NCBI RefSeq assembly: GCF_030867385.1
Contig: NZ_JAPFBJ010000004.1
Span: 186,001 to 250,000 of the forward strand
Length of the DNA stretch: 64,000 nucleotides
DNA from: Sphingobium sp. DEHP117
Lineage (GTDB): Bacteria; Pseudomonadota; Alphaproteobacteria; Sphingomonadales; Sphingomonadaceae
Direction of reading: 5' to 3'
The translations under genes were made by a program, and so were the position numbers. The notes beneath the pieces were generated by a model. It saw only the letters and a program-made list of their open reading frames with translations, did not search any database and was not told the origin of the DNA. This document shows, piece by piece, positions 12,194 through 64,000 of this stretch (position 1 is its first letter; every line of letters begins with the position of its first letter).

Positions 12194-12261
12194 GGGGAGG
12201 GGGGACAGGTGGGGCATGCCGCCGATCGGCAGCAGACCCCAGCAACCCACCGGAGACCTCC

Positions 12262-23981: not shown

Positions 23982-24014
23982 TAATCGCGAGGTGTCGATA
24001 ATGTGAAGGAACGC
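23982..24014 (+). repeat. Left terminal inverted repeat of RIT element
   Basis: 33 bp, starts TAATCGCGAGGTGTCG and ends GAAGGAACGC. Identical to the reverse complement of 27770-27802. Confidence 0.92.
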
Positions 24015-41128: not shown

Positions 41129-43051
41129 TCACTTAGCGATAAATGGATCGGGGTCGATATAAGGCTTCATGTCATCGCGGCGAAACCAGATCGCCCGTGA
41201 ACAGCGCAGTGGCGATTGGCCGGTCACGAAGATGATCTGTTCGTCCGTTCGCATATCGGCCAGCAGCTCATTGGGCTCGATCAGCGCTTTCCGCTGATAA
41301 TTGATCGACCTTGATCGGGTGCGGGACGATCCGCCAGACAGTGCGCCGCCGCGACTATTGGACCCGCGCGAAATCGAGAGCTGATCGATTTCTATGGTGT
41401 AGTGACCGCACATTTCCGAGATTGTTTTCGCGAGATCGGGATCGTTGATGGCCGAGAAAGACCGGTAGGACGTTGCCTCGAACCATTTGCTTTGGGCATT
41501 GCGGCCCCAGATGTCGAGGAGCTGGCCGAGCGACTGATATATCATCAACAGGGTAATGCCATATTTGCGTCCTTCATCGCGGGCGGTCTCGATGATCTTG
41601 AGCCGCCCCAGCGTGATCGCCTCATCGGTCAGGAACAGGACCTTGCCATTGGTCCGAGGATCGCCGTCATAAACGGAATTGAGCAGGGCGCCGTAGATCA
41701 CGCGTATGAGCCCCGGGTGCGCGGACAGCGTCTTGAGATCGATGTTGATGAACACATCGGTGTTCCCGTTTCGTAACTCCTGGCTTTTGAAACCGTCCGA
41801 CGAAACGAGATCCGCATAGCGCTCGAAGGAGAGCCAGCGCGTCGCTTTGGCGGCGTTGGAATAGACGCCGGAGAATGTATCGGATGCGAGATTGACAAAC
41901 GGCCCGAGCTTGTCGCGGATGAAGCTCGAGGGCGTTGTGGCGTGGACATTTTTGATATGCTCGCGCAGCTTCTTTTCCGGCAGCGCCAGGAGCTGTCGCA
42001 GTGTGCGCAGGTTTCTTTGCAGTGCATCATATTCCGGACTGAGAGCGACATCGGCAAGCAGCGCGGTAATTAATTCGCGGCCCTGTTCCCTGAAAAACTC
42101 GTCCGAGCCGCTCGACATTTCAGCCTCATCGGCGACGATCCACTCCGCGATGAAAGCGATGTTTTCTTCCGGTTGTCCATTGTCATGAATCCAGTCGAGA
42201 ACATTGAACGATGTTGCCGGGTCGTCCGGATCGATGACATGGATCACATGCCCCAGCGATCGGCGATAGCGCTTGACCATCGGAAAGACCTGTGTCGACG
42301 GGTCGAGAATAACGGTCGAGCTGAGCCAGGTGAGAAGGTTCGGAATGACGACGCCTGTGGTCTTGAAACTGCCCGGTCCTGCAAAAACCAATCCATGACC
42401 TGATCCGATCGATCCGTCGAACGTCAGTAGCGGTTGTTCATGGCCTTTGCCCCATGTCGAACGATCGGTCGGATCGAATGTTGGGGTGATGCTCCTGTCG
42501 AGATCGGGACGATAGCGCTCTCCCAAGACTATGGGGCCGCCTGGAGGAAAGAGCTTTGCCGCTCTTGCCAAATCCATCCATTCCGCGTCCCCATGATAGG
42601 CGTGGAATGATCGTTTGGGTGACAAGCGCCCACGCCTCGTCGGCGCGCGCTGTTGTTTGAGGATCAGATATAGTATCCCGGCCATCATCATCGAAAGTCC
42701 GATGCCGGTTAAAGCAAAGCTGTCGATATAGGGCAGGGCGGCTATGGGCCATGCTGCAGTCTTGAAATAAGGGTGGAGCCGTTCCAGCTCGGCACCAATA
42801 AGCAGAATTGCGTTCGTAAAAGTGCCGAAGATGACGCCATAGGCCAATGATGGAAAGGCGGGGGACTTCAATGCCGAACGCGCCATCACCATCGCGATCG
42901 ACGTCGCCAATAACGGCGCCATCAATGGACACGAACGGATCAGGATGGGATTGGTTGAGCGGACCACAAGTCCCGGCCAGGCATAAGCGATACCCGCCAT
43001 GGTCGCGATGGTGCAGATCATGGTGATAGCGATAAGCAGCACTCTGTTCAT
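41129..43051 (-). CDS. traG: Type IV coupling protein (VirD4/TraG)
   Basis: 640 residues from ATG 43051, which overlaps the traD stop as ATGA; the frame is open to 43084. N-terminal membrane segments (LLIAITMICTIATMAGIAYAW and others up to about 125) anchor it in the inner membrane. Walker A is GPGSFKTTGV (about 225) and Walker B is VLFLTDEAITLGRL. It carries the relaxase-DNA complex to the mating channel. Full length. Confidence 0.95.
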   Translation of the reverse strand: MNRVLLIAITMICTIATMAGIAYAWPGLVVRSTNPILIRSCPLMAPLLATSIAMVMARSALKSPAFPSLAYGVIFGTFTNAILLIGAELERLHPYFKTAAWPIAALPYIDSFALTGIGLSMMMAGILYLILKQQRAPTRRGRLSPKRSFHAYHGDAEWMDLARAAKLFPPGGPIVLGERYRPDLDRSITPTFDPTDRSTWGKGHEQPLLTFDGSIGSGHGLVFAGPGSFKTTGVVIPNLLTWLSSTVILDPSTQVFPMVKRYRRSLGHVIHVIDPDDPATSFNVLDWIHDNGQPEENIAFIAEWIVADEAEMSSGSDEFFREQGRELITALLADVALSPEYDALQRNLRTLRQLLALPEKKLREHIKNVHATTPSSFIRDKLGPFVNLASDTFSGVYSNAAKATRWLSFERYADLVSSDGFKSQELRNGNTDVFINIDLKTLSAHPGLIRVIYGALLNSVYDGDPRTNGKVLFLTDEAITLGRLKIIETARDEGRKYGITLLMIYQSLGQLLDIWGRNAQSKWFEATSYRSFSAINDPDLAKTISEMCGHYTIEIDQLSISRGSNSRGGALSGGSSRTRSRSINYQRKALIEPNELLADMRTDEQIIFVTGQSPLRCSRAIWFRRDDMKPYIDPDPFIAK

Positions 43052-43257
43052 GATCCGAAACCTGCTTTTCCAACGGCGATCCATTTTTCCCGCGTTGCCG
43101 GATCGGCGCTGCTTTCTCTCGCCAACAGGAGCGCCCCCAGGATCAAAGCGGGATCTTCGTCAGAAAAGCCCGCCTTGATAACGAGGCTGCCGAAAATGAT
43201 CTTTTGCCGCGTATCGGCACGCCGCTTGTCGGATGGATTGCTTCGCGCCTCAGTCAT
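43048..43257 (-). CDS. traD: Small conjugal transfer protein TraD-like
   Basis: 69 residues from ATG 43257, overlapping the traC end by 8 bp; the frame is open to 43326. MTEARSNPSDKRRADTRQKI, then IFGSLVIKAGF, is the pattern of Ti-type TraD/TraC-family accessory proteins. In Ti plasmids these assist relaxosome assembly. Coupled to traG by ATGA. Confidence 0.78.
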   Translation of the reverse strand: MTEARSNPSDKRRADTRQKIIFGSLVIKAGFSDEDPALILGALLLARESSADPATREKWIAVGKAGFGS

Positions 43258-43519
43258 GAGACGACGCAGCTCTCGCCGCCGCTTTGCTACCTCCTGTTGA
43301 AGCGGAGCTTTCCTGAAATCGCGCAACCAATTCCCGGAATGCGTCGCGAAGGACCTTGTCGCTCAAATCCAGTTCGGCGAGCCCTGTCGCCACCGCGATT
43401 TTTCCGATGCGCTGGCCTGATGCTTCCAGCACCGCTTCCAGTTCTGCCCTGCGGGCCTCGATTTCAGCACGAATTTTTCCGACCCTGGAGAGGGCGGCGG
43501 CTTTTCTGACTTCGCTCAT
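43250..43519 (-). CDS. traC: Conjugal transfer protein TraC-like
   Basis: 89 residues from ATG 43519 (MSEVRKAAALSRVGKIRAEI). A long helical region (EARRAELEAVLEASGQRIGK) is followed by GLAELDLSDKVLRDAFREL, fitting TraC, an oriT-binding relaxosome accessory protein. First gene of the traC-traD-traG unit, reading away from oriT. Confidence 0.78.
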   Translation of the reverse strand: MSEVRKAAALSRVGKIRAEIEARRAELEAVLEASGQRIGKIAVATGLAELDLSDKVLRDAFRELVARFQESSASTGGSKAAARAASSHD

Positions 43520-43637
43520 GAGACTGTCGATCCTTCCATTGCACAAGAATTTTCAGATCATGATTGATCTGCCGGAATTGTCAAATATGATAATTTCGTA
43601 TAAAAGGAACGCCAGCCCTACTGAAGCGAAGCGTTTC

Positions 43638-43669
43638 GGAGGGCGCACTTATACATCGCTGCGCGATGT
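43638..43669 (-). other. oriT: Origin of transfer (oriT) with IncQ/Ti-type nic motif
   Basis: On the minus strand an inverted repeat ACATCGC-GCA-GCGATGT (43669-43653) is followed by ATAAGTGCGCCCTCC. TAAGTGCGCCCT is the nic core of RSF1010-type origins. By analogy the cut falls between 43644 and 43643. It sits between divergent traC and traA, as in Ti plasmids. Confidence 0.85.
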
Positions 43670-43795: not shown

Positions 43796-46700
43796 ATGGC
43801 GATCTACCATTTCTCAGCGAAGATCATCAGCCGGGGGCGGGGCCAGTCCGCGCTGTGCGCTGCCGCCTATCGCCATGGCGCGGAAATGATGTTCGAACGC
43901 GAAGGGCGGATCGTTGCCTACACTGGCAAACACGAGGTTGTTCACACGGAATTTCTCATTCCCGATACTGCGCCGCACTGGGTTTCGGAATTATCATCGC
44001 TTTCGGCGAGCCAGGCTTCTGGAAAATTCTGGAACAGGGTCGAAAGTCATGAGCGGCGCAACGACGCGCAGCTCGCGCGCGAGATCGAGCTGGCGCTGCC
44101 AAAAGAATTGTCACGCGAGCAGAATATCGCGCTCCTGAAGGAATTTCTGATCGAGCATTATGTTTCAAGGGGCATGATTGCCGACGTCGCCTATCACGAT
44201 CTTGAGCATAATCCGCACGCGCATATCATGCTGTCGCTCCGGCCGCTTCATGAGGACGGGTTTTCCTCTTCCCGTGTTCCGGTGCTGAGTGAAAATGGTC
44301 AGCCATTGCGCAGTGCTCCAAGCAAAAGCCATCCCAAGGGCCAGATCGTCTATGCCGACATTTTCGGCGGCGACTGGACGAAGAAGGACGCGCTTGCGGG
44401 TTGGCGCGAAAGCTGGGGGCAAGCCGTCAACTATGCGCTCGCCAAGGCGGGATTTGGACAGAGCATCGATCACCGCACTCTTGAGGCCCAGGGTATCGAG
44501 CTCGCCCCGTCTCGTCATCAGGGCCCCAATTGTCGCGGGATGGAAAGGCGCGGGCTGGAAGCGCCGCGCGTCGTCGTCGATCAGGAATTGCAGGTACAGA
44601 ATATCGCGCGAATAGCGGCGAGGCCCGAATGCGTGCTGGAAGTTATCACGGCGCAGGAGAGCGTGTTCGATCGGCGCGATATGGCAAGGGCGCTGCACCG
44701 TTATGTTGATGATGCAGCCGCTTTCGGATCGCTACTCGCGCGGATCGAAACCTGCGCCGAGCTGGTTCCGATTGCGGCAGCCAGCTATAATGAGGCGGGC
44801 CAGGAAATAGCCGCCGCCCGCTACACCACGCGCGCAATGCTCGACCTTGAGCGAGCAATGCTGGCGAATGCCAGGGCGCTTGCCGAGCGAGGAGGCGAGG
44901 GCATAGTCGAGCTGCTTTGCGAGCAGAGTTTTGCGCGCAGCGCTGCAAACGGACTGGTGCTGAGCGATGAGCAGAAAGCCGCTGTCCGCTACATAACAGG
45001 CGAGAGCCAGCTCGCCCTTGTTGTGGGTAGGGCAGGGGCTGGCAAATCGACCATGTTGCGCGCGGCCCATCAATCCTGGGCGGCAGCGGGCAAAAGGGTA
45101 TTTGGCGCCGCGCTCGCCGGGAAAGCGGTCCAGGGTCTACAAGAGTCGAGCGGCATCACGCAAGCACGCACCCTTGCCTCGTGGGAAGCGCGATGGGCGC
45201 GGGGGATAGACCGCCTGCAAAAAGGTGATGTGCTTGTCATCGACGAGGCCGGAATGATCGGCTCCCGCCAGCTCGCCTCGTTCCTCGGCATGGCGCGGGC
45301 GCAGGGCGTGAAGCTTGTTCTGGTCGGCGATCCCGAGCAGCTTCAACCCATCGCGGCGGGCGCTGCCTATCGCGCCGTCGCGGGCGCCGCGGGATATGTC
45401 GAGCTGACGGAAGTCCGGCGTCAGAAGAGCGCGTGGATGCGCGAGGCGACCATAGCTCTGGCGCTAGGACAGGTGGACAAAGCGTTCGAAGCCTATGGCA
45501 AGCATGGAGCAGTCCATAGCTATGCGCTCAAGGATCATGCGATCGAGGACATGGCGCGCCAATGGGTTGCGGACCATGTGATGGGGCATGAGGCTTTTAT
45601 GCTGGCCCATTCGCGCAACGAGGTCGCGGCGCTTAACGAGAGGGCGCGGGCCATGCTCGTCGAAGGAGGCCATCTGGGCGCGGCGGCTACATACAAGGTG
45701 GCGGGGAGGCAAGTCATATTTGCGGTGCGCGAGCGCGTGCTCTTCCTACAGAATGACGCCGGCCTCAATGTCAAGAACGGGCAGTTCGGCACGGTGGTCA
45801 AGGCGAGAGATGGCAGGCTCGACATCGAGATCGTCGACCCCGATGGCGCCAAGCGTGTGGTCCGTGCGAGGGAGCAGATCTACAGCGCGCTCCAGCATGG
45901 CTACGCGACGACCGTTCACAAATCCCAGGGCATGACGGCCGCGCGCATCCATATGCTCGCGAGCCGGAGCTGGAATAGCAATCTCGCTTATGTCGGGCTG
46001 ACCCGCCATAGCGAGCGCGCCGACATTTATTATGGCCGCAAAAGTTTCGCGGAAATGGGAGGGATCGCAACGGCGCTGGCGCGATCGGGGGCGAAGGGGA
46101 TCAGCACCGATCATGAGGCGAGCGACCTTTACGCGCGGGCGGTCGACTATGGCGATCGGCGCGGCCATTTCACTCCGGCGGCCTGGGCGCAGAATATTGG
46201 CAGGATCATCGCCGCACAGCGGGCGAAACTTGCCACGATGGCCGAAGCCTTGAGCGCCATTATGTCGCGGTTCGACGCCATGGGCCGCCGGTCTGCCCCA
46301 GAGGCGAGCGTTCTGGAGCTGGCGCCGCTGGTGCCGGCAGTCACGACATGGACGCAGACACCGCAGGCTGTGGGCGCCGGCGAGGCGATGAAGAGCCGGC
46401 AGGTGACCAGGAAAGTTGCCGAGATCGAAAAGGCGGCACTGCGGATCTGGGCCGAACCCAAAGCGATAGTGCAAAAATTGCTGCCGCTTGGAAGCCTCCC
46501 GGACGCGCAATTCGCCAGGGAAATGGCGGCGCTGCCCATGCGCGTATCGGAGCTGGGGGCCTTGCGACGCGCTGGTCTGCTCAGTCGACCTAAACAGCCG
46601 GAGGTCGGCGATATTCGCAACCTCCTGGGCGAGATCGGTTCCTATAGAAAAACCGTGCAGGCCATGACAGCGAAACTGGCTGCCGTTGAGCAGGAGCGGC

Positions 46701-47017
46701 GTTCGGTGCTGGCGATTGCGGTTCCCGGCCTGTCGCCGTCTGCGCGCGCGCTGGTGGAAACACTCGCCGGCGTGCGCGCCCTTCACGGTGACGATGCATT
46801 GGACAGCGCCGTGCGCGCAGCAGCGCAAGCCCAGCCCCTTGAGGTGCAAGAGATTGCGCGGGCAGGGGAGGCGATCGCGCGCAGATTGGGTGGGATGAGC
46901 GCGCTCAATGATGAAGCCGGACGCCTCGAAAAACTCTGGTCTTTGAGGGGCGGATTTGATTCATTGCCTTTGCAGATGAGCGGAGGCGGTGATGGCGGGA
47001 CAGCCGGGTTTCTTTGA
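43796..47017 (+). CDS. traA: MobA/MobL-TraA relaxase-helicase, C-terminus replaced by IS
   Basis: 1073 residues. The N-terminal MOBQ relaxase domain starts MAIYHFSAKIISRGRGQSAL and has the metal-binding histidines HNPHAHIM (138-145). The TraI-like SF1 helicase has VVGRAGAGKSTM (about 405) and LVIDEAGMIGSR. It nicks oriT and unwinds the plasmid. From about residue 1041 (46916-46919) the codons belong to an IS5-type element, so the last 32 or so residues are not native. The true tail remains at 48225-48398. Confidence 0.93.
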   Translation: MAIYHFSAKIISRGRGQSALCAAAYRHGAEMMFEREGRIVAYTGKHEVVHTEFLIPDTAPHWVSELSSLSASQASGKFWNRVESHERRNDAQLAREIELALPKELSREQNIALLKEFLIEHYVSRGMIADVAYHDLEHNPHAHIMLSLRPLHEDGFSSSRVPVLSENGQPLRSAPSKSHPKGQIVYADIFGGDWTKKDALAGWRESWGQAVNYALAKAGFGQSIDHRTLEAQGIELAPSRHQGPNCRGMERRGLEAPRVVVDQELQVQNIARIAARPECVLEVITAQESVFDRRDMARALHRYVDDAAAFGSLLARIETCAELVPIAAASYNEAGQEIAAARYTTRAMLDLERAMLANARALAERGGEGIVELLCEQSFARSAANGLVLSDEQKAAVRYITGESQLALVVGRAGAGKSTMLRAAHQSWAAAGKRVFGAALAGKAVQGLQESSGITQARTLASWEARWARGIDRLQKGDVLVIDEAGMIGSRQLASFLGMARAQGVKLVLVGDPEQLQPIAAGAAYRAVAGAAGYVELTEVRRQKSAWMREATIALALGQVDKAFEAYGKHGAVHSYALKDHAIEDMARQWVADHVMGHEAFMLAHSRNEVAALNERARAMLVEGGHLGAAATYKVAGRQVIFAVRERVLFLQNDAGLNVKNGQFGTVVKARDGRLDIEIVDPDGAKRVVRAREQIYSALQHGYATTVHKSQGMTAARIHMLASRSWNSNLAYVGLTRHSERADIYYGRKSFAEMGGIATALARSGAKGISTDHEASDLYARAVDYGDRRGHFTPAAWAQNIGRIIAAQRAKLATMAEALSAIMSRFDAMGRRSAPEASVLELAPLVPAVTTWTQTPQAVGAGEAMKSRQVTRKVAEIEKAALRIWAEPKAIVQKLLPLGSLPDAQFAREMAALPMRVSELGALRRAGLLSRPKQPEVGDIRNLLGEIGSYRKTVQAMTAKLAAVEQERRSVLAIAVPGLSPSARALVETLAGVRALHGDDALDSAVRAAAQAQPLEVQEIARAGEAIARRLGGMSALNDEAGRLEKLWSLRGGFDSLPLQMSGGGDGGTAGFL

Positions 47018-48224
47018 TCTTTCGGACCGATACGAGGCGCTGAGCGCAGCGGGTGATCCGCTGGAGCGTTTGGCGTCGGTGGTGGATTTTGAGGTTTTCC
47101 GCGGGCCATTGATCGCGGCGCTTCGGCGCGGTCGGCGGACCAAGGGCGGACGGCCGCCGTTTGATCCGGTGCTCATGTTCAAAATTCTGGTGTTGCAGGC
47201 GCTCTATTCACTGTCGGACGAAGCGACCGAGTTTCAGATCAAGGATCGACTCTCGTTCCAGCGGTTCCTGGGCCTCGGGCTTGACGGCACGGTGCCGGAT
47301 GCCACGACGATCTGGTTGTTCCGGGAACGCCTGGTGAAAGCCAAGGCAATCGATCGGCTGTTTGCCCGCTTCGATGCTGCGCTGACCGACCGGGGCTATC
47401 TAGCGATGGGTGGCCAGATCATCGACGCGACAGTCGTGCCCGCACCCAAGCAACGTAACACCGAGGCGGAGAAGACGGCGATCAAGGAAGGTCGTGTGCC
47501 CGAGGACTGGAAGCCGGCCAAGGCCCGACAGAAAGATCGTGATGCGCGCTGGTCGATCAAATACAGCAAGGCCAAGGTCAAGGAGGGCGCCGATCCCGGA
47601 GCGGCCCAAAAGTCCAGGGGGCCTGTCGATCTCGCCATTCCCATGTTCGGCTACAAGAACCATATCGGCATCGACAAGGCACACGGCCTGATCCGCACCT
47701 GGGATGCGAGCGCCGCCAATGCCCATGACGGGGCGCGGCTGCCGGTTCTGGTAAGCAAGCAGAACACCGCCTCCGGCGTCTGGGCGGACACCGCCTACAG
47801 GTCCAAGAAGAACGAGACCTTCCTGGAAAAGGGTATGTTCAAGAGCCATATCCACCAGAAGCGGTTGCCGAGACGGCCGTTGCCCGAACACATAGCCAGA
47901 GCCAATGCCAGGCGCTCCAAGGTTCGCGCCCACGTCGAGCATGTGTTCGCCGGACAGAAGCATCGCATGGGTCTGGTCGTACGCACCATCGGCATCGCCC
48001 GCGCCCGCATCAAGATCGGCATGGCCAACCTCGCCTATAACTTCCAGCGTCTGATCTGGCTCGAAGGGAGAACTGCGCCCGCTTGATGCAAGAACGGCCC
48101 CAAAAGGGCCGGAAAGACACCAAAATCAGCAGAAAACCGACCAGGCAGGCCGCGCCGTCACGCCGCTGCCAACAGTCGCACAACAATCACACCAAAATCA
48201 GCCGGTTTTTCGAGGTGTCCAGCC
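46916..48224 (+). mobile_element. IS5-family insertion sequence in traA
   Basis: About 1.3 kb. Ends GGACGCCTCGAAAAAC (46919-46934) and GTTTTTCGAGGTGTCC (48205-48220) are inverted with one mismatch; weaker symmetry extends outward a few bases. One transposase gene in the same direction as traA. No clear target duplication. The relaxase frame resumes right after it. Confidence 0.85.
46992..48086 (+). CDS. IS5-family DDE transposase
   Basis: 364 residues from ATG 46992 (GTG at 46989 is an alternative; GGAGGCGGTG is upstream). Starts MAGQPGFFDLSDRYEALSAA and contains KGGRPPFDPVLMFKILVLQA and LSDEATEFQIKDRLSFQRFL, the IS5 N-terminal signature. DDE residues are in MGGQIIDATVV (D), GVWADTAYRSKKNE (D) and RSKVRAHVEHVFAGQKHRMG (E). 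Full length and probably active. It overlaps the false end of traA by 26 bp. Confidence 0.93.
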   Translation: MAGQPGFFDLSDRYEALSAAGDPLERLASVVDFEVFRGPLIAALRRGRRTKGGRPPFDPVLMFKILVLQALYSLSDEATEFQIKDRLSFQRFLGLGLDGTVPDATTIWLFRERLVKAKAIDRLFARFDAALTDRGYLAMGGQIIDATVVPAPKQRNTEAEKTAIKEGRVPEDWKPAKARQKDRDARWSIKYSKAKVKEGADPGAAQKSRGPVDLAIPMFGYKNHIGIDKAHGLIRTWDASAANAHDGARLPVLVSKQNTASGVWADTAYRSKKNETFLEKGMFKSHIHQKRLPRRPLPEHIARANARRSKVRAHVEHVFAGQKHRMGLVVRTIGIARARIKIGMANLAYNFQRLIWLEGRTAPA

Positions 48225-48398
48225 TTCGCGCAAAAGGTACGATCAGTCGCAAGTGATGAAAAGCACCATAAGTCCCTACACGCGATGTTGCGGGAAATAT
48301 CCGCGATATACCGCACTCAAAAGAGCATCAAAAGGCGTGAATCCGAAGATATTTCGATCACGCGGCAAGAGTATTTGAGCAAAAGGCCAAGGTTATAA
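48225..48398 (+). pseudogene. Detached C-terminal tail of TraA relaxase
   Basis: Immediately after the IS right end the frame reads FAQKVRSVASDEKHHKSLHA, MLREISAIYRTQKSIKRRES and EDISITRQEYLSKRPRL, then TAA. It has no start codon with a ribosome site. Joined to residue 1040 of TraA it gives about 1097 residues. The basic, arginine-rich end is what is expected of a type IV secretion signal. Confidence 0.75.
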
Positions 48399-48451: not shown

Positions 48452-50140
48452 ATGAGCAATTCTGTCAGTCTTTCTCCCATAACGATACGGGAATTTTCTG
48501 AGCCTGATCGAGCGGCGGTGCAGGAGGCCGTTGTGCGCGCCGTGGAAGACGATCCGGAGCGCTTTTTGAAGCGCTATGTCGAGCATCCGGAATCGCATGA
48601 AGGCCGCTATATATCGGCCGATCTTTTCAAGGAAATGTTCGACGCGTTTGCCCAGAGCAAGGAAGCGCGCGGCCGCTATAACACGCCGGTTCATAATGCG
48701 GCGGCTGTGCTCTCGGCGGAGCAATTTCGCAAGGTAGTGCATGCGCCGCACTCTCCTGGTGAGCATGTTCTCTTTCTGACCGGCATACCTGGCGCGGGGA
48801 AAACCTCGACCATTGTGCGCAGCGGCGCGCTTCCCAGTGATGTTCGCCTGGTCTTCGAAGGCCAGATGAGCAACCCCAGAACCGGCCTCGAAAAGATCGG
48901 CATGGTGATCGATGCGGGCTTGAAGCCGCTCATCCTCGTCGTCCATCCAACGCCCGAAAATGCCCTCGACAACACGCTGCAGCGCTTCGTCGAATATGGC
49001 CGTGGTGCAGGATTGGGGATCATGGCGGCGATCCAGGGAAATCTGCCGGCCAGCCTCGAAGCAATTCACGCCCGATATGGCGACAGGATAGCGTTGGAGA
49101 TCAAAGATGTTCGTGACAGAAATGCCGTCATTTCCTATAGTGGATGGGAGCATTTGCCCATTCTCCGATCGGAGGGAAGCCGTGACCAAATCTACGAACG
49201 TCTCGTCGCCGCCCTCAACGCGCAGCGCGAAGCCGGAGCCATCAGCCAGGCAGCCTATGACCAGGCCTTCGGACGCGTCCAGCCCGAGCCTGCGCTCCTG
49301 GCTGGACAGCATGGACAAGGGCATCGAGGAGATGCACCGGGACGAGAACATCCGCAAATCAGTGGCGAAGCGTCTCTCCTAACGCCTATTAAGCCGTTCA
49401 TCCCTGGAGATGGGGAAGCCGTTAAACCGCTCATAGTGCCGGACCGCACACAGGCAGAGCGGATGGCCGGCGTCGTCGACAATGAAAATGTCGTTCGAAG
49501 CGCGATCGACATGAACGCGAAGCTTTGCGCGACATTCAAGCATCCTGACGTCGCGCTCGCTCTTGTGGAAAACGCGATCCGTACTGCGCCTCCCGGCTCG
49601 GAGCGGGCGCATGTAGAAGCGACGGCACTCAAACAGGTCCGATCACTTGAACTGCGGGGATCGGACCGTCTCCTCGATTTCCAGGGTCGTGCCGCGAGGA
49701 GCGCCGCCAGGCAGGAATTGCCGGGAGCAATCGACAGCATCAAACACCATACCCTGAGCGTTGAGCACCATGCGAAGCATGGCGATCGCGAGCATTTAAG
49801 CCTGCAAAAGCAATGTGCCGTTGCAATTCCCGACGCCTCCCCGGAGCTTCGCGCGCTGCTTGCAGCGCCTGACGCGCAGAGTTTTGCAGCAACCCTGCGC
49901 GCCGGCGACAAAGAGGAGATCCTTGGCAATGCCGAGTCACTCCTTGCCAGCATCGAAGCGCGCATAGGCAATGCGCGAAGCTCCGAGGATGGCGCCAGGA
50001 TCGGCGTCAGCGAAGGCCAGTTGGCACATTTGCGCTCTTTGAAAAGCGCTCTGCATCGTGTCGAGCAGCGCGCCCAGACGATCGAGGAAAGCCCCTCGAT
50101 CAACAAATCCGAGAAGGAGGGTCCGCGCCTTGTCCGGTAA
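48452..50140 (+). CDS. Zeta-toxin-like kinase with long C-terminal domain
   Basis: 562 residues. The P-loop LTGIPGAGKTSTIVRSGALP (110-129) and the preceding YISADLFKEMFDAF fit zeta toxins and related polynucleotide/sugar kinases. Residues about 340-440 (KHPDVALALVENAIRT, then LELRGSDRLLDFQGRAARSA) look BID-like to me, a weak resemblance. A helical region follows to the end. It lies between traA and traF, and no epsilon-type antitoxin is visible. Could be a conjugation accessory protein or a translocated effector. Confidence 0.75.
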   Translation: MSNSVSLSPITIREFSEPDRAAVQEAVVRAVEDDPERFLKRYVEHPESHEGRYISADLFKEMFDAFAQSKEARGRYNTPVHNAAAVLSAEQFRKVVHAPHSPGEHVLFLTGIPGAGKTSTIVRSGALPSDVRLVFEGQMSNPRTGLEKIGMVIDAGLKPLILVVHPTPENALDNTLQRFVEYGRGAGLGIMAAIQGNLPASLEAIHARYGDRIALEIKDVRDRNAVISYSGWEHLPILRSEGSRDQIYERLVAALNAQREAGAISQAAYDQAFGRVQPEPALLAGQHGQGHRGDAPGREHPQISGEASLLTPIKPFIPGDGEAVKPLIVPDRTQAERMAGVVDNENVVRSAIDMNAKLCATFKHPDVALALVENAIRTAPPGSERAHVEATALKQVRSLELRGSDRLLDFQGRAARSAARQELPGAIDSIKHHTLSVEHHAKHGDREHLSLQKQCAVAIPDASPELRALLAAPDAQSFAATLRAGDKEEILGNAESLLASIEARIGNARSSEDGARIGVSEGQLAHLRSLKSALHRVEQRAQTIEESPSINKSEKEGPRLVR

Positions 50141-50144
50141 CGCA

Positions 50145-50690
50145 ATGCCCTCTGACATGCCCCAGCGCAGGAAATATGTCATGGTCGCCGGCGTAGCCCT
50201 TTTTGCCGTCCTGGCGACCACCGCAATGGCCTGGTCGCAAGGCATCATGATCAATGAAACACCGAGCTTTCCGCAAGGTATCTATCAGAAATATCCACGG
50301 GAGGCCAGGGTGAGGCGAGGCCAGATGGTTGTCGCCTGCCCACCGGACGAACCGATATATCGTCTCGCATTACAACGCCATTATCTGAGGCCCGGATTGT
50401 GCCCCAGCGGCACGGAGCCGCTTATCAAGAAGGTGGTGGGGCTGCCGGGTGACAGCGTGACCGTTGGCAGCAAGGTCAGTGTGAACGGCGCCGTTATAGC
50501 CAACAGCAATGTTTATCCAACCGATGGCGACAATCGGCCGATGAAGGCGTGGAGCAGCGGAGAAGTGCCAGCGGGGCAGCTATTCCTTATGTCGGATTAC
50601 AGGGAGGACAGTTTTGACAGCCGATATACAGGACCGCTCCCGGATCACGCCGTCGTTGCGTACATTAGGCCGCTATGGACGTACGATTGA
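50145..50690 (+). CDS. traF: Conjugal transfer signal peptidase TraF (S26)
   Basis: 181 residues from ATG 50145. One N-terminal membrane segment (YVMVAGVALFAVLATTAMAW). The S26 active site is visible as Ser in TPSFPQGIY and Lys in PLIKKVVGLPGD. TraF matures the pilin TrbC by cyclisation in IncP/Ti systems. The stop overlaps traB, which starts inside its end. Confidence 0.9.
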   Translation: MPSDMPQRRKYVMVAGVALFAVLATTAMAWSQGIMINETPSFPQGIYQKYPREARVRRGQMVVACPPDEPIYRLALQRHYLRPGLCPSGTEPLIKKVVGLPGDSVTVGSKVSVNGAVIANSNVYPTDGDNRPMKAWSSGEVPAGQLFLMSDYREDSFDSRYTGPLPDHAVVAYIRPLWTYD

Positions 50691-51840
50691 GCTCAAATTA
50701 TCGGCACTTTGCAGCAAATCCTGGTTCGCGCTGGGGCTTTTGCTGGCGGCTGTGTCCTGGTCGGGCGATATCCGGTTGATGCCTGTGGCGAGCTTGATGC
50801 CGCTCTTATGGTCGATCGCGCCCACACGTCCAAAAGCGACCCTCTTCGCGCTTGGCTATCACGCCGGCGCGAGCTGGTCGCTTATCGCCGGGATAGTGCG
50901 TGTTCTCGATACCGGCGCATTGAGCGCGATCGCCCTATGGCTCTTGGGCAGTGCCATGCCCGCCTCGGTCTATGGACTGCTGCACTCTCATGACAAAAAA
51001 TCGCAGCCAGTTCGCTTTGCGCTGGCTATGATATTCTGTGCCTTCCCCCCGATCCTTACAGGCTGGGCCAATCCGATCACTATCGCAGGTCTGTGGTTCC
51101 CAGGTTTCGCATGGGCGGGCCTGTTGGCGACACTGATCATATTGGCTGCGCTCGCCAGCAAGATCGATCTGCCATTCAAGATTCTGGCGATCATCATGCT
51201 CACGATTTTTGGCGCACTCTCCTATCGTTCACCCGCTGCAATCAAACTCACCGGGCATATGACCCATGAAGATTACTCTTCAGGCGGGCTCGATGGCCAC
51301 GAATATGAGCGGCTGCAAAGTGCAGCAAACCTGGTTGCCGCCGATCGAGCAGTCATACATGTCTTTCCCGAAGGCTATGCCGGTTTATGGGGGCGCGGCT
51401 CAGAGATATTCTGGCTTGATATGATGGACCAGGCCGATCCTCATGCGCTCGTCGTTATGGGCGCGTTCAGCCCTCTCCCTCATGGCGGCTATGAGAATAT
51501 TGCCGTTGTTCTCGATCGCGGCCGTGCTCAGCTTATCAAGCAGCGTATGCCCGTTCCCTTGGGCATGTGGAAGCCTTGGAGCGCAGCAAGCGTGCCGGCC
51601 ACATTTTTTCGCGGTTCAACTGTTGACACCAGCAAGGGCCGAATTGCTGTGCTGAATTGCTATGAGATTGTCGTTGTCTGGACGGTCCTCGATACGATGA
51701 TCGACCACCCCAGCGTGCTGCTGGGCATCGGCAATGTCTGGTGGGGCAGAGGCACAAACATCGGACTTATCCAGTCCGAAATCCTGACCGCATGGGGGAG
51801 GTTATACAATGTACCGACCGCGCTCAGCCTCAATGAATAA
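50614..51840 (+). CDS. traB: Conjugal transfer protein TraB (nitrilase-like)
   Basis: 408 residues from TTG 50614, overlapping traF by 77 bp. About six N-terminal membrane segments (residues 38-205) are followed by a nitrilase-type domain with the triad Glu in VFPEGYAGLWG, Lys in LIKQRMPVP and Cys in VLNCYEIVV. The layout recalls apolipoprotein N-acyltransferase. Ti TraB boosts transfer by an unknown mechanism. Confidence 0.87.
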   Translation: MTADIQDRSRITPSLRTLGRYGRTIELKLSALCSKSWFALGLLLAAVSWSGDIRLMPVASLMPLLWSIAPTRPKATLFALGYHAGASWSLIAGIVRVLDTGALSAIALWLLGSAMPASVYGLLHSHDKKSQPVRFALAMIFCAFPPILTGWANPITIAGLWFPGFAWAGLLATLIILAALASKIDLPFKILAIIMLTIFGALSYRSPAAIKLTGHMTHEDYSSGGLDGHEYERLQSAANLVAADRAVIHVFPEGYAGLWGRGSEIFWLDMMDQADPHALVVMGAFSPLPHGGYENIAVVLDRGRAQLIKQRMPVPLGMWKPWSAASVPATFFRGSTVDTSKGRIAVLNCYEIVVVWTVLDTMIDHPSVLLGIGNVWWGRGTNIGLIQSEILTAWGRLYNVPTALSLNE

Positions 51841-53363: not shown

Positions 53364-53800
53364 TAGCCGTGCTCCAAGCGGAAGAAGCGGGATCCTGCGC
53401 TGGAATGATCCAGCCATCGGCCGTGGCCTGCAAACTCGTAAATGCCGATCGCGCCTGGTTCGACCGCCCCTGCCGCAAAGCCAGGCAAGATCATCGCGAT
53501 ATGTCCCGCGCGCGGCATCACCGGATTGGCCTGGTCGGACGGCGACTGGCGGCAGCTGCCGGGATGGACATGGATGTCCGCAACAACACCATAGCCGCGT
53601 TCGCGGCATAGTACCCAAAGACGCGGCAGCGCAGTCTGCCTTATCGTTACCTCGCCGGTTTCAAGTGCTCGCTCGTCGATGTCATCATAATAGATGAAGT
53701 CGAGAATGCGGTTGCCGCCATTGGGAAGAGGGATTCCGAGCAGATAGGCGCCGCTTTCGCGCGTCTGATCTTGCGTGCGTCGCGCCAGCTCGGCGACGCC
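53363..53800 (-). pseudogene. JAMM/JAB-type deubiquitinase-like peptidase, 5' end broken
   Basis: An open frame of 145 codons reads GVAELARRTQDQTRESGAYL, LGIPLPNGG, RGYGVVADIHVHPGSCRQSP, then SDQANPVMPRAGHIAMI. The HxH-S-x-x-D JAMM motif and the upstream Glu are present. There is no start: a TAA at 53801-53803 blocks the frame. A GTG at 53825 in another frame (SAQSLAV) could be the original start with a one-base shift. The IS701 end is 32 bp upstream. Stop overlaps the E1 start. Confidence 0.8.
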
Positions 53801-53831
53801 TTACTGCCAGAGACTGCGCTGACACCGCAGC

Positions 53832-53835
53832 CTAG
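53832..53835. repeat. CTAG target duplication of IS701-type element (left)
   Basis: CTAG at both ends (also 55250-55253), the known target preference of IS701-family elements. Confidence 0.8.
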
Positions 53836-56070: not shown

Positions 56071-56126
56071 TTTCTTCACTCCATAATCTCGTTCAATGAA
56101 TCCGCTGAACGGCACTTAAAAAAAAT

Positions 56127-58360: not shown

Positions 58361-58361
58361 G

Positions 58362-60196: not shown

Positions 60197-60799
60197 TTAG
60201 AGACCAGCAATATGAGTGTCAGACCCGTTGATACTCGACAAATCGAGAGCGGTATCGGCGTTGTAAGGCGTCACTGCCGGCACATGTTCGGCTGGCAAGC
60301 TGTTTGAACCCATCTCATTCTGGGTGGCGGTTGGAGGTGTGGACCCGACCGCTCTCGACATAATGTGCTGAACATAATTCATGGTTTCGCGGTAAGGAGG
60401 GATGCCGCCATAACGATCAACGGCAGGCTCACCTGCGTTATAGGCTGCCAGCGCCAATTCGTAATTTTTATACCGTCCCATCAGATATTTGAAATGGTAG
60501 AGGCCAACGATGATGTTCTCGACCGGATCGTTGATATTGTGCATCTGATAGTGCGCCGCGAGGGACGGCATCAACTGCATAAGACCCGTCGCGCCCTTGG
60601 GTGAAACGATTGTCGGCCGCCATGCGCTCTCCTGGGAGACGATCGCAGCCGCCATGTCAGGATCCACCTGAAGCGATTGCGCCACAGCGCGGACAACAGG
60701 CTCAAAGACCGCCCGCTGATTAGGCGCGGGTGATCGGGCGACTGCGGAAGTCGCGCTGATGCTGAACAGGGCAGCAATGCCGACAAAACGCCGCATCAC
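60197..60799 (-). CDS. virB1: VirB1-like lytic transglycosylase
   Basis: 200 residues with a signal peptide (MMRRFVGIAALFSISATSAV). SLT domain: MAAAIVSQESAWRPTIVSPK with catalytic Glu, GATGLMQLMPSLA, and ELALAAYNAGEPAVDRYGGI, PPYRETMNYV. It opens peptidoglycan for assembly of the mating channel. Overlaps the trbI stop by 4 bp. Last gene of the visible trb operon. Confidence 0.92.
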   Translation of the reverse strand: MMRRFVGIAALFSISATSAVARSPAPNQRAVFEPVVRAVAQSLQVDPDMAAAIVSQESAWRPTIVSPKGATGLMQLMPSLAAHYQMHNINDPVENIIVGLYHFKYLMGRYKNYELALAAYNAGEPAVDRYGGIPPYRETMNYVQHIMSRAVGSTPPTATQNEMGSNSLPAEHVPAVTPYNADTALDLSSINGSDTHIAGL

Positions 60800-62253
60800 C
60801 GCCGCCGCGCCACGAGCTGCAACGGATAGTCGGGGAGGACAATATCCTTTTCCACGATGATGTTGAAGCGATAGCCGGGCCTGATCGTGAGCGTTGGCTG
60901 GAGGTCAAGCCCCTTGTCGATTACCCGCGTCGCAACGCGACCAAATTCCTGTGAAAATTCCTGCTGGGCCGCGTCCTCAACCCGGATTCCGCCATTCAAT
61001 GTCTGATTGCTCGATCCACTGGCATAGCGTACTCCGGTTCCGAGAAGCGATGTCAGTATCGCCGCGCCGAACACCTTGCCCGTGTGGCTATTTTTTCGGT
61101 CCCTGAAACCCGCATAGCCCGCTTGATCCGAGCCAGACATGCCGCCCAGATTGAGGGTAAAGCCGTTCGGGAAAATGAGGTCGGTCCAAACGACCAGAAC
61201 CCGGTTTTGTCCGTAGCCTATTGAACTGTCATAGCGACCAAAGAGCTTCGTCCCCTGTGGAATGAGCAAATGCTTTCCGGTCGTGCTGTCATAGACATGC
61301 TCGCTGACCTGGGCGATCAGGCGCCCCGGAAGATCGCTGTTCACGCCCGTTATCATGACGCTGGGAATGATGCTCCCGCGCTTGACTTCTCCTGGCGCTA
61401 TGGGGGCCGACACCGAGTTTTCGAGATAGCCGTTGTCCGTATTGCCCTGAGATGCGAAAGCGCGCTTGGATATCTGCCCGTTGGGATCGTTCAAGCCCGC
61501 AAGACTGGCTGGGGTAATAGCCCCGGGGAGTGAGAGCGCACCCGAATTTGCGAGGGCGCTGATCGCATTAGGAGAGGCGCCAGCCTGCGCGAGCAAAGCC
61601 GCCAAGGGATTTTCTGCGCCCGGATTAGCGCCGGCAGTGCTGAAATGCACATCGGTCTCACCGCTCTGCGCCGCATCGACAAAGGCGCGATGCTGCTCAA
61701 TTTGCTTCATCCGGTAAGCATATGCTGACTCCGCCCGATGACGCACATATTCCTGGTAGGGTGTTGGTTGAGGCGCACCACCACTTGATCCCGCATCCGC
61801 AATCTGCGTTGGCGGGCAGGGGGCGGACGCGGAATTGGCCGGACCTTGTGCCGGCACAGGAAGCGATGGGTTCACGGAGGACGCCGCCTTCACCGCTTGT
61901 TGCATCGTGGCAGGCGGGATGGCATTGCCACCACATGGGTCAAGCGGCGCCACTGGAGGATTATCCGGCAACGGTGCTTCCAGGACACCAGCAACCGGAG
62001 CGCCTTTTGACAAGGAGTCGGCGGCTTCACTCGCCGCTATTCTGCCTGTGCTCGCTATGCTTTGATCGGTTTGCACGGCATGTTGCCCGCGTTGCGAGAT
62101 GCCATAGACCACAATTCCGCCGACAAGCATTCCGACGGTCGTCATCAAGATTATCGGATTCTTGTTCAACCTGCGGACAGAAGTAGGGTTGACCGAACCA
62201 TATGGCTCAGGCGAGGGTGCTCCCTCTTCGATCGCAACATCCTTATCGATCAT
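60796..62253 (-). CDS. trbI: TrbI/VirB10 mating channel scaffold
   Basis: 485 residues. A cytoplasmic N-terminus is followed by one membrane segment (PIILMTTVGMLVGGIVVYGI, about 32-51), a proline-rich periplasmic linker and the VirB10 core: RGSIIPSVMITGVNSDLPGR, LIPQGTKLFGRYDSSIGYGQ, RVLVVWTDLIFPNGFTL. It spans both membranes and joins the energy and core complexes. Full length. Overlaps both neighbours by 4 bp. Confidence 0.95.
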   Translation of the reverse strand: MIDKDVAIEEGAPSPEPYGSVNPTSVRRLNKNPIILMTTVGMLVGGIVVYGISQRGQHAVQTDQSIASTGRIAASEAADSLSKGAPVAGVLEAPLPDNPPVAPLDPCGGNAIPPATMQQAVKAASSVNPSLPVPAQGPANSASAPCPPTQIADAGSSGGAPQPTPYQEYVRHRAESAYAYRMKQIEQHRAFVDAAQSGETDVHFSTAGANPGAENPLAALLAQAGASPNAISALANSGALSLPGAITPASLAGLNDPNGQISKRAFASQGNTDNGYLENSVSAPIAPGEVKRGSIIPSVMITGVNSDLPGRLIAQVSEHVYDSTTGKHLLIPQGTKLFGRYDSSIGYGQNRVLVVWTDLIFPNGFTLNLGGMSGSDQAGYAGFRDRKNSHTGKVFGAAILTSLLGTGVRYASGSSNQTLNGGIRVEDAAQQEFSQEFGRVATRVIDKGLDLQPTLTIRPGYRFNIIVEKDIVLPDYPLQLVARRR

Positions 62254-62624
62254 GTCAGATCCTTTATGCTTTTGCTGAGCGCCGTCGCTGCAATGGCCTT
62301 GTCACCATCGACCCTGAACCCGCGCGTCAGAACCATATGGCTGCTTGTGAGGCTCGCGATCACCAGGCCGTCAGACGAACGCACTAGCGCGACGTGAACG
62401 ACGGGCGCGTTGCGCGAATTGCTCAGCGCGCAGCCCCCTGCCATCACCTGCTCTATAGCGGCTTGGCGGAGTGATCTTTTCACCTTCAGGCGGATCGGTG
62501 CAGGGCAAATTTCATATGGGTCAGCCTGCGATATCGTCATGCCGAAGATCTGTTGCTGAAGCGCAGGTTCGACAGGAGGGGGAGAGGCGAATATCCCCGA
62601 TAGGAATGCGAGAAGCCAGGACAT
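62250..62624 (-). CDS. TrbH-position protein of the T4SS operon
   Basis: 124 residues. A short N-terminal hydrophobic segment (MSWLLAFLSGIFASPPPVEP) is followed by a small domain (ICPAPIRLKVKRSLRQAAIE). No similarity I can name. It sits between trbG and trbI, overlapping each by 1-4 bp, which is where TrbH lies in IncP and Ti operons. Likely a periplasmic accessory. Confidence 0.7.
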   Translation of the reverse strand: MSWLLAFLSGIFASPPPVEPALQQQIFGMTISQADPYEICPAPIRLKVKRSLRQAAIEQVMAGGCALSNSRNAPVVHVALVRSSDGLVIASLTSSHMVLTRGFRVDGDKAIAATALSKSIKDLT

Positions 62625-63460
62625 TACTGGTATCTCGCAATATCAATACGACTGCCTTTCCTGCCAACACCGGAGACGAGCGCCGCGCGATCGAACAGTT
62701 GATCGACGATGTAGCGATGATCGACGACGCGGTAATTGACCAGTTTCTCTTTTTTGTTTTCGTCCAATATGAGGAGGGCCGGCGCCTCACTGGAATCGAG
62801 CGCGCTTGGCATGTCGATGTAGGTTTTGAGGCCATCATTATAGACCCGCTCCGGCTTCCATCGTGATTTGCCCGTTATGCGGTAGCGGAAATCAAGACCG
62901 TCAGCGCGCCCGCCATAACTGCCCCTGGCACTATCGGATACCGGGTTGACCCGTGCCAGCTCCGCTGGCGATATCTGCGCCTCATCGGGGTAGATGAAAC
63001 CGACGCGCGCCATATATGCGGCGGCATCGGATCTCAGCGCAATATGATAGACCCGGCGCGACGTCGTGATGATGAGCGACGTGTTCAAATTCGGTTCGAC
63101 CGGCTTCACGATCAAATGAACTTTCTGATCGAGACCTTCTCCGCTTTTCGCCGCGCTGATCTTCCAGCGTACAATGTCGCCGACATTGACATTGGAGACC
63201 TGTTCGCCGGCCTGCAGCTCGATATCGCACACCTGGAGCGGTGCACATACAACCTGGGGTTGGCTCGCTCCGAAGAGGATATTGACCTTTCCATCGTCTC
63301 CTGGAGCAATGACACCGCTGTCGTTCTGCCAGAGCTGGCTATAGGATATGCCGCGTTTGGCGGGTAAATTGACCTCCTTGGTCGAACGCGCGGTAGCTGC
63401 GGAGGCCGCCAACAGCGCGGGAATTGCCACGGCACTATAGAGCGCTCGATTTTTGTTCAT
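62624..63460 (-). CDS. trbG: TrbG/VirB9 outer-membrane core protein
   Basis: 278 residues with a signal peptide (MNKNRALYSAVAIPALLAAS). VirB9 features: NILFGASQPQVVCAPLQVCD, IELQAGEQVSNVNVGDIVRW, SLIITTSRRVYHIALRSD and the C-terminal GRKGSRIDIARY. Cys72 and Cys78 lie within the N-terminal domain. Forms the outer core with TrbI. Overlaps trbF and the next gene. Confidence 0.94.
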   Translation of the reverse strand: MNKNRALYSAVAIPALLAASAATARSTKEVNLPAKRGISYSQLWQNDSGVIAPGDDGKVNILFGASQPQVVCAPLQVCDIELQAGEQVSNVNVGDIVRWKISAAKSGEGLDQKVHLIVKPVEPNLNTSLIITTSRRVYHIALRSDAAAYMARVGFIYPDEAQISPAELARVNPVSDSARGSYGGRADGLDFRYRITGKSRWKPERVYNDGLKTYIDMPSALDSSEAPALLILDENKKEKLVNYRVVDHRYIVDQLFDRAALVSGVGRKGSRIDIARYQ

Positions 63461-64000
63461 TTTACATACCCCGCATAGGAAATATTTGTGATGTAAAGTC
63501 CGAGTGGGTTCACCAATATGGTTTTGGGATCCGGGTGGGCGGCGAGCGCAATCTGCACTTCCCCGCGAAAATAATTGGTGGCCTGCGTTGTGCCGTCGCG
63601 ATTATAGGTCGTTTCGGTCCATTCAATCCGATAGCTGCGGTCGCTGACGGGCAGGACGGTCTGGACCGAGACAGAAACCGTTTCCTGCTGCGCTTTCTCG
63701 AACGGGCTATTGCCTGGTTGCTGAAAATACTCGGATATCGTCCGCGTCGCCGGATCGGATTTCGCGAGATAGGCGTAGAGCTTGTCGACCATCGCGCGCT
63801 GCACGACGGCATCGGCCGAGACGCCACGAAAATTCTGGATGAAGTCCGCTATGAGGAGCTGAACGATCCGCTTGTCATAGCTGGTCGTGCTTTCGAGCGG
63901 GCCATTATAGGCGACCTGGCCGAGCTTGTTAACTTCGACGATATAGGGAACGACCTTGGTCTGGCTCGAAAGATATATGGCATAGAGCATGGTTGTTCCG
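63457..64000 (-). CDS. trbF: TrbF/VirB8 inner-membrane protein, N-terminus outside window
   Basis: The frame is open to the window edge (about 181 residues seen; the ATG at 63990 is internal). VVPYIVEVNKLGQVAYNGPL is the VirB8/TrbF start of the periplasmic domain. Later parts (DPATRTISEYFQQPGNSPFE, YRIEWTETTYNRDGTTQATN) fit the VirB8 fold. The missing part should hold the cytoplasmic tail and the membrane segment. Overlaps trbG by ATGA. Confidence 0.93.
   Translation of the reverse strand, partial: GTTMLYAIYLSSQTKVVPYIVEVNKLGQVAYNGPLESTTSYDKRIVQLLIADFIQNFRGVSADAVVQRAMVDKLYAYLAKSDPATRTISEYFQQPGNSPFEKAQQETVSVSVQTVLPVSDRSYRIEWTETTYNRDGTTQATNYFRGEVQIALAAHPDPKTILVNPLGLYITNISYAGYVK

What the first reader, a model, noticed from the sequence alone, without database searches (positions are those of the whole stretch)
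46916..48398. IS5-type element removes the C-terminal tail of the relaxase
Native TraA codons run to about 46916. The IS follows, and right after its right end the relaxase frame continues for 57 codons to TAA at 48396. The lost tail is rich in Arg/Lys (KSIKRRES, SKRPRL), the type of C-terminal signal used for type IV secretion of relaxases. The plasmid may nick oriT but transfer poorly.
Basis: partly seen in the sequence, partly recalled or inferred. Interest (0 to 1): 0.62.

Follow-up and report, generated by a model that had tools for sequence, protein, structure and literature searches.

The report
Jumping gene cut relaxase's export tail
A mobile DNA element has cut off the last 57 amino acids of the protein that starts plasmid transfer, probably removing half of the two-part tag that lets it leave the cell, while a neighbouring toxin-like gene seems to keep a tag of the same kind.

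Summary
A 1302-bp IS5-family element (46919-48220) with inverted ends and a 4-bp target duplication (AGCC) sits in a Ti-type traA relaxase gene. Native codons run to 46918, and the same frame resumes at 48225 for 57 codons to TAA. Of seven IS copies examined, six had both ends recognisable, and all six carry perfect 4-bp duplications.

TraA residues 841-1041 are homologous to C-termini of Rhizobiales TraA relaxases that carry a BID domain, the secretion signal shared with Bartonella effectors. Nine such relatives continue 57-70 aa past a conserved R-F/L-G, against 66 aa here. Reviews describe BID plus a positively charged tail as one bipartite signal. The IS seems to spare the BID bundle and remove the +7 tail, replacing it with 32 neutral residues.

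The next gene encodes a Zeta-toxin protein whose C-terminus probably is also BID-like (weakly basic end, +2). TraG resembles BID-associated coupling proteins; VirB genes are present; the same contig carries F-type and MobF genes. Reduced TraA export is likely but untested, and transfer by the other system may be unaffected. Boldest open reading: a conjugation machine becoming a dedicated toxin injector.

The parts
41129..43084 (-). traG, VirD4-type coupling protein (651 aa)
   Evidence: Pfam T4SS-DNA_transf E 3e-104; NCBIfam PRK13822 TraG over cut-off, TIGR02767 just below; 37-41% identical to TraG in 8 of the 10 BID-TraA loci, no match in the other two (L040, L041), about 24-32% to other coupling proteins
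43048..43326 (-). traD (small Dtr protein)
   Evidence: Pfam PF06412 over cut-off
43250..43546 (-). traC (small Dtr protein)
   Evidence: Pfam PF07820 over cut-off
43639..43669 (+). putative oriT: nic-like GAGGGCGCACTTA (motif recalled) followed by the 7-nt inverted repeat ACATCGC/GCGATGT
   Evidence: exact and only match in the window (up to 1 mismatch: 0.09 expected, 8 of 100 shuffles with a match); inverted repeat; traC/traA intergenic position as in PMC5675462 (passage)
43796..46918 (+). traA, native codons 1-1041 of the Ti-type MobQ relaxase-helicase
   Evidence: MobA_MobL E 1.5e-68 and AAA_30 E 2e-53; TIGR02768 TraA_Ti and, narrowly, MobQ over cut-off
46322..46717 (+). BID-like helical bundle of TraA (residues 843-974)
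   Evidence: profile 45.7 bits vs best 9.2 of 2000 shuffles; hhalign E 4.7e-10; model aligned to BID 4yk1, Z 8.0
46915..46918 (+). left copy of the target duplication AGCC
46919..48220 (+). IS5-family insertion sequence, 1302 bp, terminal repeats 46919-46934 / 48205-48220
   Evidence: the only 100% copy among four matches in this genome, next best 81%
46919..47017 (+). IS-encoded replacement tail of TraA (32 aa, net charge 0, then stop)
46989..48086 (+). transposase, DUF772 + DDE_Tnp_1
48221..48224 (+). right copy of the target duplication AGCC
48225..48398 (+). separated C-terminal tail of traA, 57 codons + TAA, net charge +7
48452..50140 (+). Zeta-toxin protein (562 aa): N-terminal Zeta kinase domain, C-terminal BID-like domain (about residues 331-562)
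   Evidence: PDB Zeta_1 toxin 6eph E 7.7e-52 over residues 8-286; BID:
50058..50690 (+). traF, conjugative signal peptidase
   Evidence: TIGR02771 over cut-off
50614..51840 (+). traB-like carbon-nitrogen hydrolase
   Evidence: NCBIfam PRK13825 series, best E 8e-65, all below cut-off
60197..60799 (-). virB1-like transglycosylase
   Evidence: Pfam SLT E 3.6e-25
60796..62253 (-). virB10
   Evidence: Pfam TrbI E 7e-61
62624..63460 (-). virB9
   Evidence: Pfam CagX E 4.7e-52
63457..63990 (-). virB8 (ORF as called lacks the first 38 model positions; start not settled); the cluster continues outside the window (virB6, 4, 3, 2, 11 in L147)

Best explanation
An IS5-family element inserted, apparently recently, into the last part of a Ti-type (MobQ) traA on a 277.5-kb contig of what is most likely a Sphingobium. 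It removed the final 57 residues. Native TraA ends in a bipartite type IV secretion signal: a BID four-helix bundle (about residues 843-974) and an extension ending in a basic tail. The relaxase, helicase and BID bundle remain, but the basic end is replaced by 32 neutral IS-encoded residues. The most likely effect is that TraA can still nick and unwind at oriT but is recruited and exported less well by its TraG/VirB machine, so transfer by this system drops. The neighbouring Zeta-BID protein keeps its own C-terminus and may still be a substrate. Shown: the insertion, the frame, the domain homologies and the gene set. Inferred: recency, the role of the tail in this protein, and the loss of export.
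For: Insertion anatomy. BID homology of TraA 841-1041: profile of nine TraA C-termini 45.7 bits vs best 9.2 of 2000 shuffles, half of them shuffles of the tail; hhalign 96.6%, pairwise E 4.7e-10; Pfam BID PF17841 in 5 of 5 relatives tested, 4 over the cut-off; the A1 profile vs PDB sequences puts three Bartonella effector chains first of 19 matches at E up to 1; BID-containing chains are ranks 1, 2 and 4 of 172 aligned to the model. Lost length: nine relatives 57-70 aa after R-F/L-G, here 66; NF010402 has 64 positions beyond residue 1040. Charge +7 lost, 0 gained. TraG resembles TraG of 8 of 10 BID-TraA loci. VirB set. [quoted passage not shown] BID plus tail is called crucial for interbacterial transfer of relaxases and toxins as well (PMC6509941, passage).
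Against: The tail is not recognisable by sequence; two true relatives' tails (L041, L058) are equally unrecognisable, so this is neutral rather than negative. One relative's end (L041) has net charge 0. The window's TraA does not itself hit the Pfam BID model. L040 and L041 carry BID-like TraA without a TraG match in the locus held. Structure evidence is weak: pLDDT 61.9, best Foldseek E 0.11, and Z about 8 is within what helical bundles give by chance (note). [quoted passage not shown] In what I read, the statement that the tail is essential concerns effectors.
Confidence: 0.66

Rival explanations
1. Near-neutral truncation: the BID bundle and other signals in TraA suffice, and this system conjugates normally with the shortened relaxase.
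For: The BID bundle is retained. A relaxase C-terminal end was dispensable for conjugation in TrwC (PMC10025392, passage). The tail is poorly conserved even among true relatives.
Against: An end of 57-70 aa is present in all nine relatives used, and a review calls BID plus tail essential for effector export.
Confidence: 0.22
2. The system is becoming a dedicated toxin injector: TraA export is lost while TraG/VirB and a BID-tagged Zeta protein stay intact, and plasmid transfer is left to the F-type/MobF genes.
For: Zeta protein with BID-like C-terminus; VirB genes and TraG open; MobF relaxase and F-type TraC on the same contig; the scenario is imagined in PMC6536674 (passage).
Against: No export or toxicity shown; the Zeta end is only weakly basic (+2 over 57 aa, +1 over 30); no antitoxin identified (uninformative control); a single genome and probably a single event; the IS lies upstream of zeta, traF and traB and may reduce their expression, and no outward promoter matched the consensus scan.
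Confidence: 0.1
3. Decay (compatible with the best explanation): the VirB/TraA system is redundant on a contig with other conjugation genes and is simply being inactivated, with traA the first casualty.
For: F-type TraC, MobF relaxase and TrwB on the same contig; another transposase gene lies between parts of a Bil-like defence operon on the same contig.
Against: The other tra and virB genes examined are open and match most of their family models, VirB11 13-273 of 370 and VirB8 39-209 of 213; the separated tail is still open.
Confidence: 0.3
4. The stretch 48225-48398 is not part of traA but a chance open frame.
For: 3.5% of base shuffles stay open over 57 codons; no sequence match.
Against: Exact frame after one copy of a well-supported 4-bp duplication; length and charge fit relatives; NF010402 has 64 more positions.
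Confidence: 0.04

Closest known systems
BID-containing TraA relaxases of AvhB/TraG-type systems in Rhizobiales (e.g. Agrobacterium pAT, Bartonella pVbh; PMC6509941, PMC5675462)
   Same: MobQ relaxase + helicase + BID + C-terminal tail; oriT between traCD and traA; VirB system; similar TraG
   Different: In a sphingomonad; about 41% identical over the relaxase-helicase to the best relative found; one BID-like domain detected; tail cut off by an IS
PezT/Zeta-BID proteins of alphaproteobacterial conjugative plasmids (PMC6509941) and VbhT of pVbh (PMC5675462)
   Same: Toxin-antitoxin type toxin domain fused to a C-terminal BID-like domain, encoded near TraA and VirB genes
   Different: The Zeta domain is of the gonococcal Zeta_1 kind; the gene lies between traA and traF; weakly basic end; no adjacent antitoxin recognised
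IS5-family elements of Novosphingobium/Sphingomonas plasmids (e.g. NZ_CP063447.1, 82%)
   Same: Transposase, terminal repeats, 4-bp duplication
   Different: 18% DNA divergence; inserted in traA

Membership tests
IS5 family insertion sequence | IS5-type DDE transposase over the curated cut-off | tested here: met
   NF033581 233.9 bits, cut-off 140
IS5 family insertion sequence | terminal inverted repeats and a short target duplication | tested here: met
   4-bp duplications in 6 of the 6 copies with both ends found, of 7 examined
Ti-type TraA (MobQ) relaxase | MobA/MobL relaxase plus RecD-like helicase over the equivalog cut-off | tested here: met
   TIGR02768 826.6 bits, cut-off 590.45; MobQ 201 bits, cut-off 200
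BID-type T4S substrate (TraA) | BID domain homology | tested here: met
   by way of TraA relatives; no direct hit to Pfam PF17841
BID-type T4S substrate (TraA) | positively charged C-terminal tail in the present protein | tested here: not met
   the present ORF ends in 32 IS-encoded residues of net charge 0; the +7 tail is separated by the IS, so the signal as it stands is incomplete
BID-type T4S substrate (TraA) | export by a VirB/VirD4 system | not testable with these tools
   needs a translocation assay
PezT/Zeta-BID toxin | Zeta kinase domain | tested here: met
   Pfam Zeta_toxin 27.2 bits, cut-off 22.3; 6eph E 7.7e-52; no NCBIfam match
PezT/Zeta-BID toxin | C-terminal BID domain | tested here: inconclusive
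   19.6-21.3 bits vs 10.8 best of 2000 shuffles, but an unrelated receptor-like sequence also reached 17.6 bits; hhalign 89.7%, pairwise E 1.8e-6; the only two plasmid hits at E up to 1 are BID proteins, E 0.2 and 0.8; BID-containing structures rank 1-4 of 984 (Z 8.6-7.0, next unrelated row 6.8), with a model whose alignment contained BID sequences. Likely, not proven
PezT/Zeta-BID toxin | positively charged C-terminal tail | tested here: inconclusive
   net charge +2 over the last 57 residues, +1 over the last 30
PezT/Zeta-BID toxin | cognate antitoxin | tested here: inconclusive
   no Epsilon_antitox match in the genome, but the control search rang nowhere

The most novel reading that the evidence does not exclude
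A conjugation system caught while turning into a single-purpose bacterial toxin injector: an IS has removed half of the relaxase's bipartite export signal while the coupling protein, the VirB channel genes and a BID-tagged Zeta toxin remain intact, and plasmid transfer is left to F-type/MobF genes on the same replicon.
Probability: 0.1. Interest if true: 0.8.

Novelty: new member of a known kind. Interest (0 to 1): 0.45.

Why it matters
It extends BID-tagged relaxases, and probably Zeta-BID proteins, to a sphingomonad plasmid: in 397 Sphingomonadaceae genomes (this one included) the BID profile rang in two, this one and a chance match; the search scored few candidates per genome and missed this genome's own Zeta end, so it is a lower bound. 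It is also a natural truncation that separates the two halves of the BID-plus-tail signal in a relaxase. If the Zeta protein is exported while TraA is not, it would be a concrete candidate for the step from DNA transfer to toxin delivery that PMC6536674 only imagines (passage).

Tried and rejected
Tail by sequence: tblastn of the 57-aa tail in 72,556 plasmid records gave no match at E up to 1; the BID profile did not pick it out from its shuffles; Pfam and NCBIfam none at E up to 10 (a true 57-aa tail from L042 also gave none, so that test has little power). Leave-one-out control: the tail scored 2.1 bits with 40 of 300 shuffles as good; true tails L041 (1.0; 55 of 300) and L058 (3.7; 19 of 300) behave alike, while seven closely related rhizobial tails score 37-105 with no shuffle as good.

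Close relatives of this TraA: none found. Best about 41% in genome contigs (80 of 304 loci kept), 40% among the 60 plasmid records listed of at least 5000, 42-43% over part of the protein in 298 family genomes. Viral contigs gave five loci, the best 37% over residues 255-721. So the empty site could not be seen in a relative.

The second Sphingomonadaceae hit of the BID profile (G427) is a chance match inside a TonB-receptor-like sequence (judged by eye). Zeta C-terminus: no other copy in 397 family genomes; one weak 30% match in 385 class genomes searched with the whole protein (G743), whose region did not match the BID profile; none in viral contigs. TraG: only 8 of 10 BID-TraA loci had a TraG match; L040 and L041 had none at E 1e-10. 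Outward promoter: none found, 0.5 expected. The oriT-like motif occurs, among 167 loci, only in L005, which is this plasmid. Foldseek E-values were not significant for either model.

Full report
What was checked. The window is bases 186001-250000 of contig C4 (277,515 bp) of a 3.59-Mb genome in five contigs. Three genomes of the same genus have contigs whose lengths equal those of named Sphingobium contigs (6313, 12640 and 31865 bp), so the organism is most likely a Sphingobium (inference).

The insertion. traA starts at ATG 43796 and its native codons end with GCC 46916-46918. The element 46919-48220 (1302 bp) carries a 365-aa IS5-family transposase between inverted ends. It is flanked by AGCC. 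Of seven copies examined (the window's, L002 from this genome, and the first five IS hits), six had both ends recognisable, and all six have perfect 4-bp duplications; L167 lacked a recognisable right end. After one copy of AGCC the traA frame continues at 48225 for 57 codons to TAA 48396-48398. Among four matches in the genome it is the only 100% copy; the others are 81, 65 and 65%. An intact transposase, a perfect duplication and a still-open separated tail suggest a recent insertion (inference).

What was cut. The relaxase (MobA/MobL, residues 17-252) and helicase domains are complete, and the protein is over the cut-off of the Ti-type TraA model and, narrowly, of MobQ. Only a minority of relatives share the part after about residue 840. 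Of the 80 TraA loci kept, ten have a C-terminus that the BID profile matches; nine of those ten built the profile, so only L040 is independent. Residues 841-1041 score 45.7 bits in that profile, against at most 9.2 for 2000 shuffles, 1000 of this stretch and 1000 of the tail. hhalign gives 96.6% and a pairwise E of 4.7e-10 against nine relatives (L040 in place of L041). The same C-termini hit Pfam PF17841, the BID domain, in five of five tested, four of them over the cut-off; the window's own sequence does not. A profile of the window's stretch with nine relatives against 177,635 PDB sequences puts three Bartonella effector chains first (E 0.0007, 0.003, 0.008) of 19 matches at E up to 1. An AlphaFold model of residues 841-1073 is of low confidence (pLDDT 61.9). 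Foldseek finds nothing significant, though its first hit and 5 of its 29 hits are BID-containing structures. VIA-align puts BID-containing chains at ranks 1, 2 and 4 of 172, best Z 8.0, rmsd 4.0, 124 residues, model 3-134, i.e. TraA 843-974. The tool warns that such Z values can be generic for helical bundles.

So the IS lies about 67 residues after the BID bundle, in the extension that leads to the C-terminus. Nine relatives run 57 to 70 residues past the conserved R-F/L-G, and this protein would run 66. NCBIfam NF010402 aligns residues 1-1040 to model positions 1-1038 of 1102, leaving 64 positions (score 827.8, below that model's cut-off of 1317). The lost tail has net charge +7; nine relatives' last 57 residues have 0 to +8; the 32 IS-encoded residues that replace it have 0. 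The tail sequence itself cannot be matched to anything. A leave-one-out control shows that true tails of the two most divergent relatives cannot be matched either.

What the literature says. In Bartonella effectors the BID domain with a short positively charged tail forms a bipartite type IV secretion signal. BID domains occur also in alphaproteobacterial relaxases and in PezT/Zeta toxins, and the review calls BID plus tail crucial for interbacterial transfer of relaxases and toxins (PMC6509941; parts 1 and 2 of 4 and passages read). A later review states that BID and tail are essential for effector secretion (PMC8714903, passages). [quoted passage not shown] Schulein et al. 2005, the primary source, was not read.

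The neighbourhood. The order is traG-traD-traC (minus strand), an oriT-like site at 43639-43669 (nic-like motif recalled; exact and unique in the window), traA, the IS, the traA tail, a Zeta protein, traF and traB, and VirB1, 10, 9 and 8 at 60197-63990. VirB6, 4, 3, 2 and 11 follow outside the window in L147. VirB5 and VirB7 were not assigned; three genes in the cluster (124, 100 and 263 aa) had no match. TraG is 37-41% identical to TraG in eight of the ten BID-TraA loci and in L105 (whose traA match runs to the contig end), and about 24-32% to the other coupling proteins found; L040 and L041 had no match at E 1e-10. This mostly fits the published statement that BID-associated coupling proteins form one group (PMC6509941).

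The Zeta protein. Residues 8-286 match the gonococcal Zeta_1 toxin structure (6eph, E 7.7e-52). The C-terminal part scores 21.3 bits in the TraA-BID profile (19.6 for the whole protein) against 10.8 for the best of 2000 shuffles; an unrelated receptor-like sequence reached 17.6 bits, so this alone is marginal. hhalign gives 89.7%, pairwise E 1.8e-6, over 177 columns. In 72,556 plasmid records at E up to 1 the only two matches are Bartonella BID proteins, a TraA and VbhT (E 0.8 and 0.2). A model (pLDDT 72.4), made with an alignment that includes TraA BIDs, has BID-containing structures at ranks 1-4 of 984 (Z 8.6 to 7.0; the next, unrelated row has 6.8); the best Foldseek E is 0.016. Its end is only weakly basic (+2 over 57 residues). 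I take it as a probable Zeta-BID protein. A BID-less relative (42% over the Zeta part) lies on contig C5. No antitoxin was recognised; the control of that search was uninformative.

Other conjugation genes. C4 also carries a MobF (TrwC) relaxase and a TrwB-type coupling protein (L148) and an F-type TraC; the rest of that system was not surveyed. The contig C1 (1.41 Mb) has two other Ti-type TraA genes that the BID profile did not pick out (the loci held may not reach all of their C-termini). So impaired TraA export need not stop the plasmid.

Judgement. The insertion and the loss of a native basic tail are secure. That the tail is the second half of a BID-type export signal is well supported by homology and position. 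That export and transfer through this system are reduced is likely but not shown. Whether the Zeta-BID protein still uses the channel, and whether the system is drifting towards toxin delivery as imagined in PMC6536674 (passage), is open. A library search for 'BID domain' with 'Sphingo' found two papers, neither opened, so I make no claim that this is absent from print beyond that search.

Noticed in passing
window 52032-56115 (minus strand): Bil (ISG15-like) defence genes: BilA 55585-56115 (E 1.9e-40), BilB 55253-55759 (E 6.9e-18), BilD 52035-53618 (E 2.5e-130), with a DDE_5 transposase 53881-55095 in between where BilC could have been; looks like an IS-broken Bil operon on the same plasmid.
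   Followed up: partly
window 24123-27717: Three overlapping phage-integrase-type recombinases in tandem, perhaps a recombinase-in-trio element (name recalled).
   Followed up: no
window 23116-24006: ArdC-type antirestriction protein (ArdcN + MPTase-PolyVal).
   Followed up: no
window 57647-58372: RES-domain protein, possibly a RES/Xre toxin-antitoxin pair with its neighbour (partner not tested).
   Followed up: no
window 12145-16317: 1390-aa strawberry-notch-like helicase (AAA_34 + Helicase_C_4).
   Followed up: no
L148 8427-13777 and G000:C4:91866-93014: Further conjugation genes on the same contig: MobF TrwC relaxase, TrwB coupling protein, F-type TraC.
   Followed up: partly
L161 4830-5975 (G000:C5): BID-less Zeta relative, 382 aa, 42% identical to the Zeta part of the C4 protein.
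   Followed up: no
Moraxella bovis plasmid records: The Zeta part also matches stretches annotated as zincin-like metallopeptidase proteins; Zeta domains may be fused to ArdC-like domains on small plasmids.
   Followed up: no
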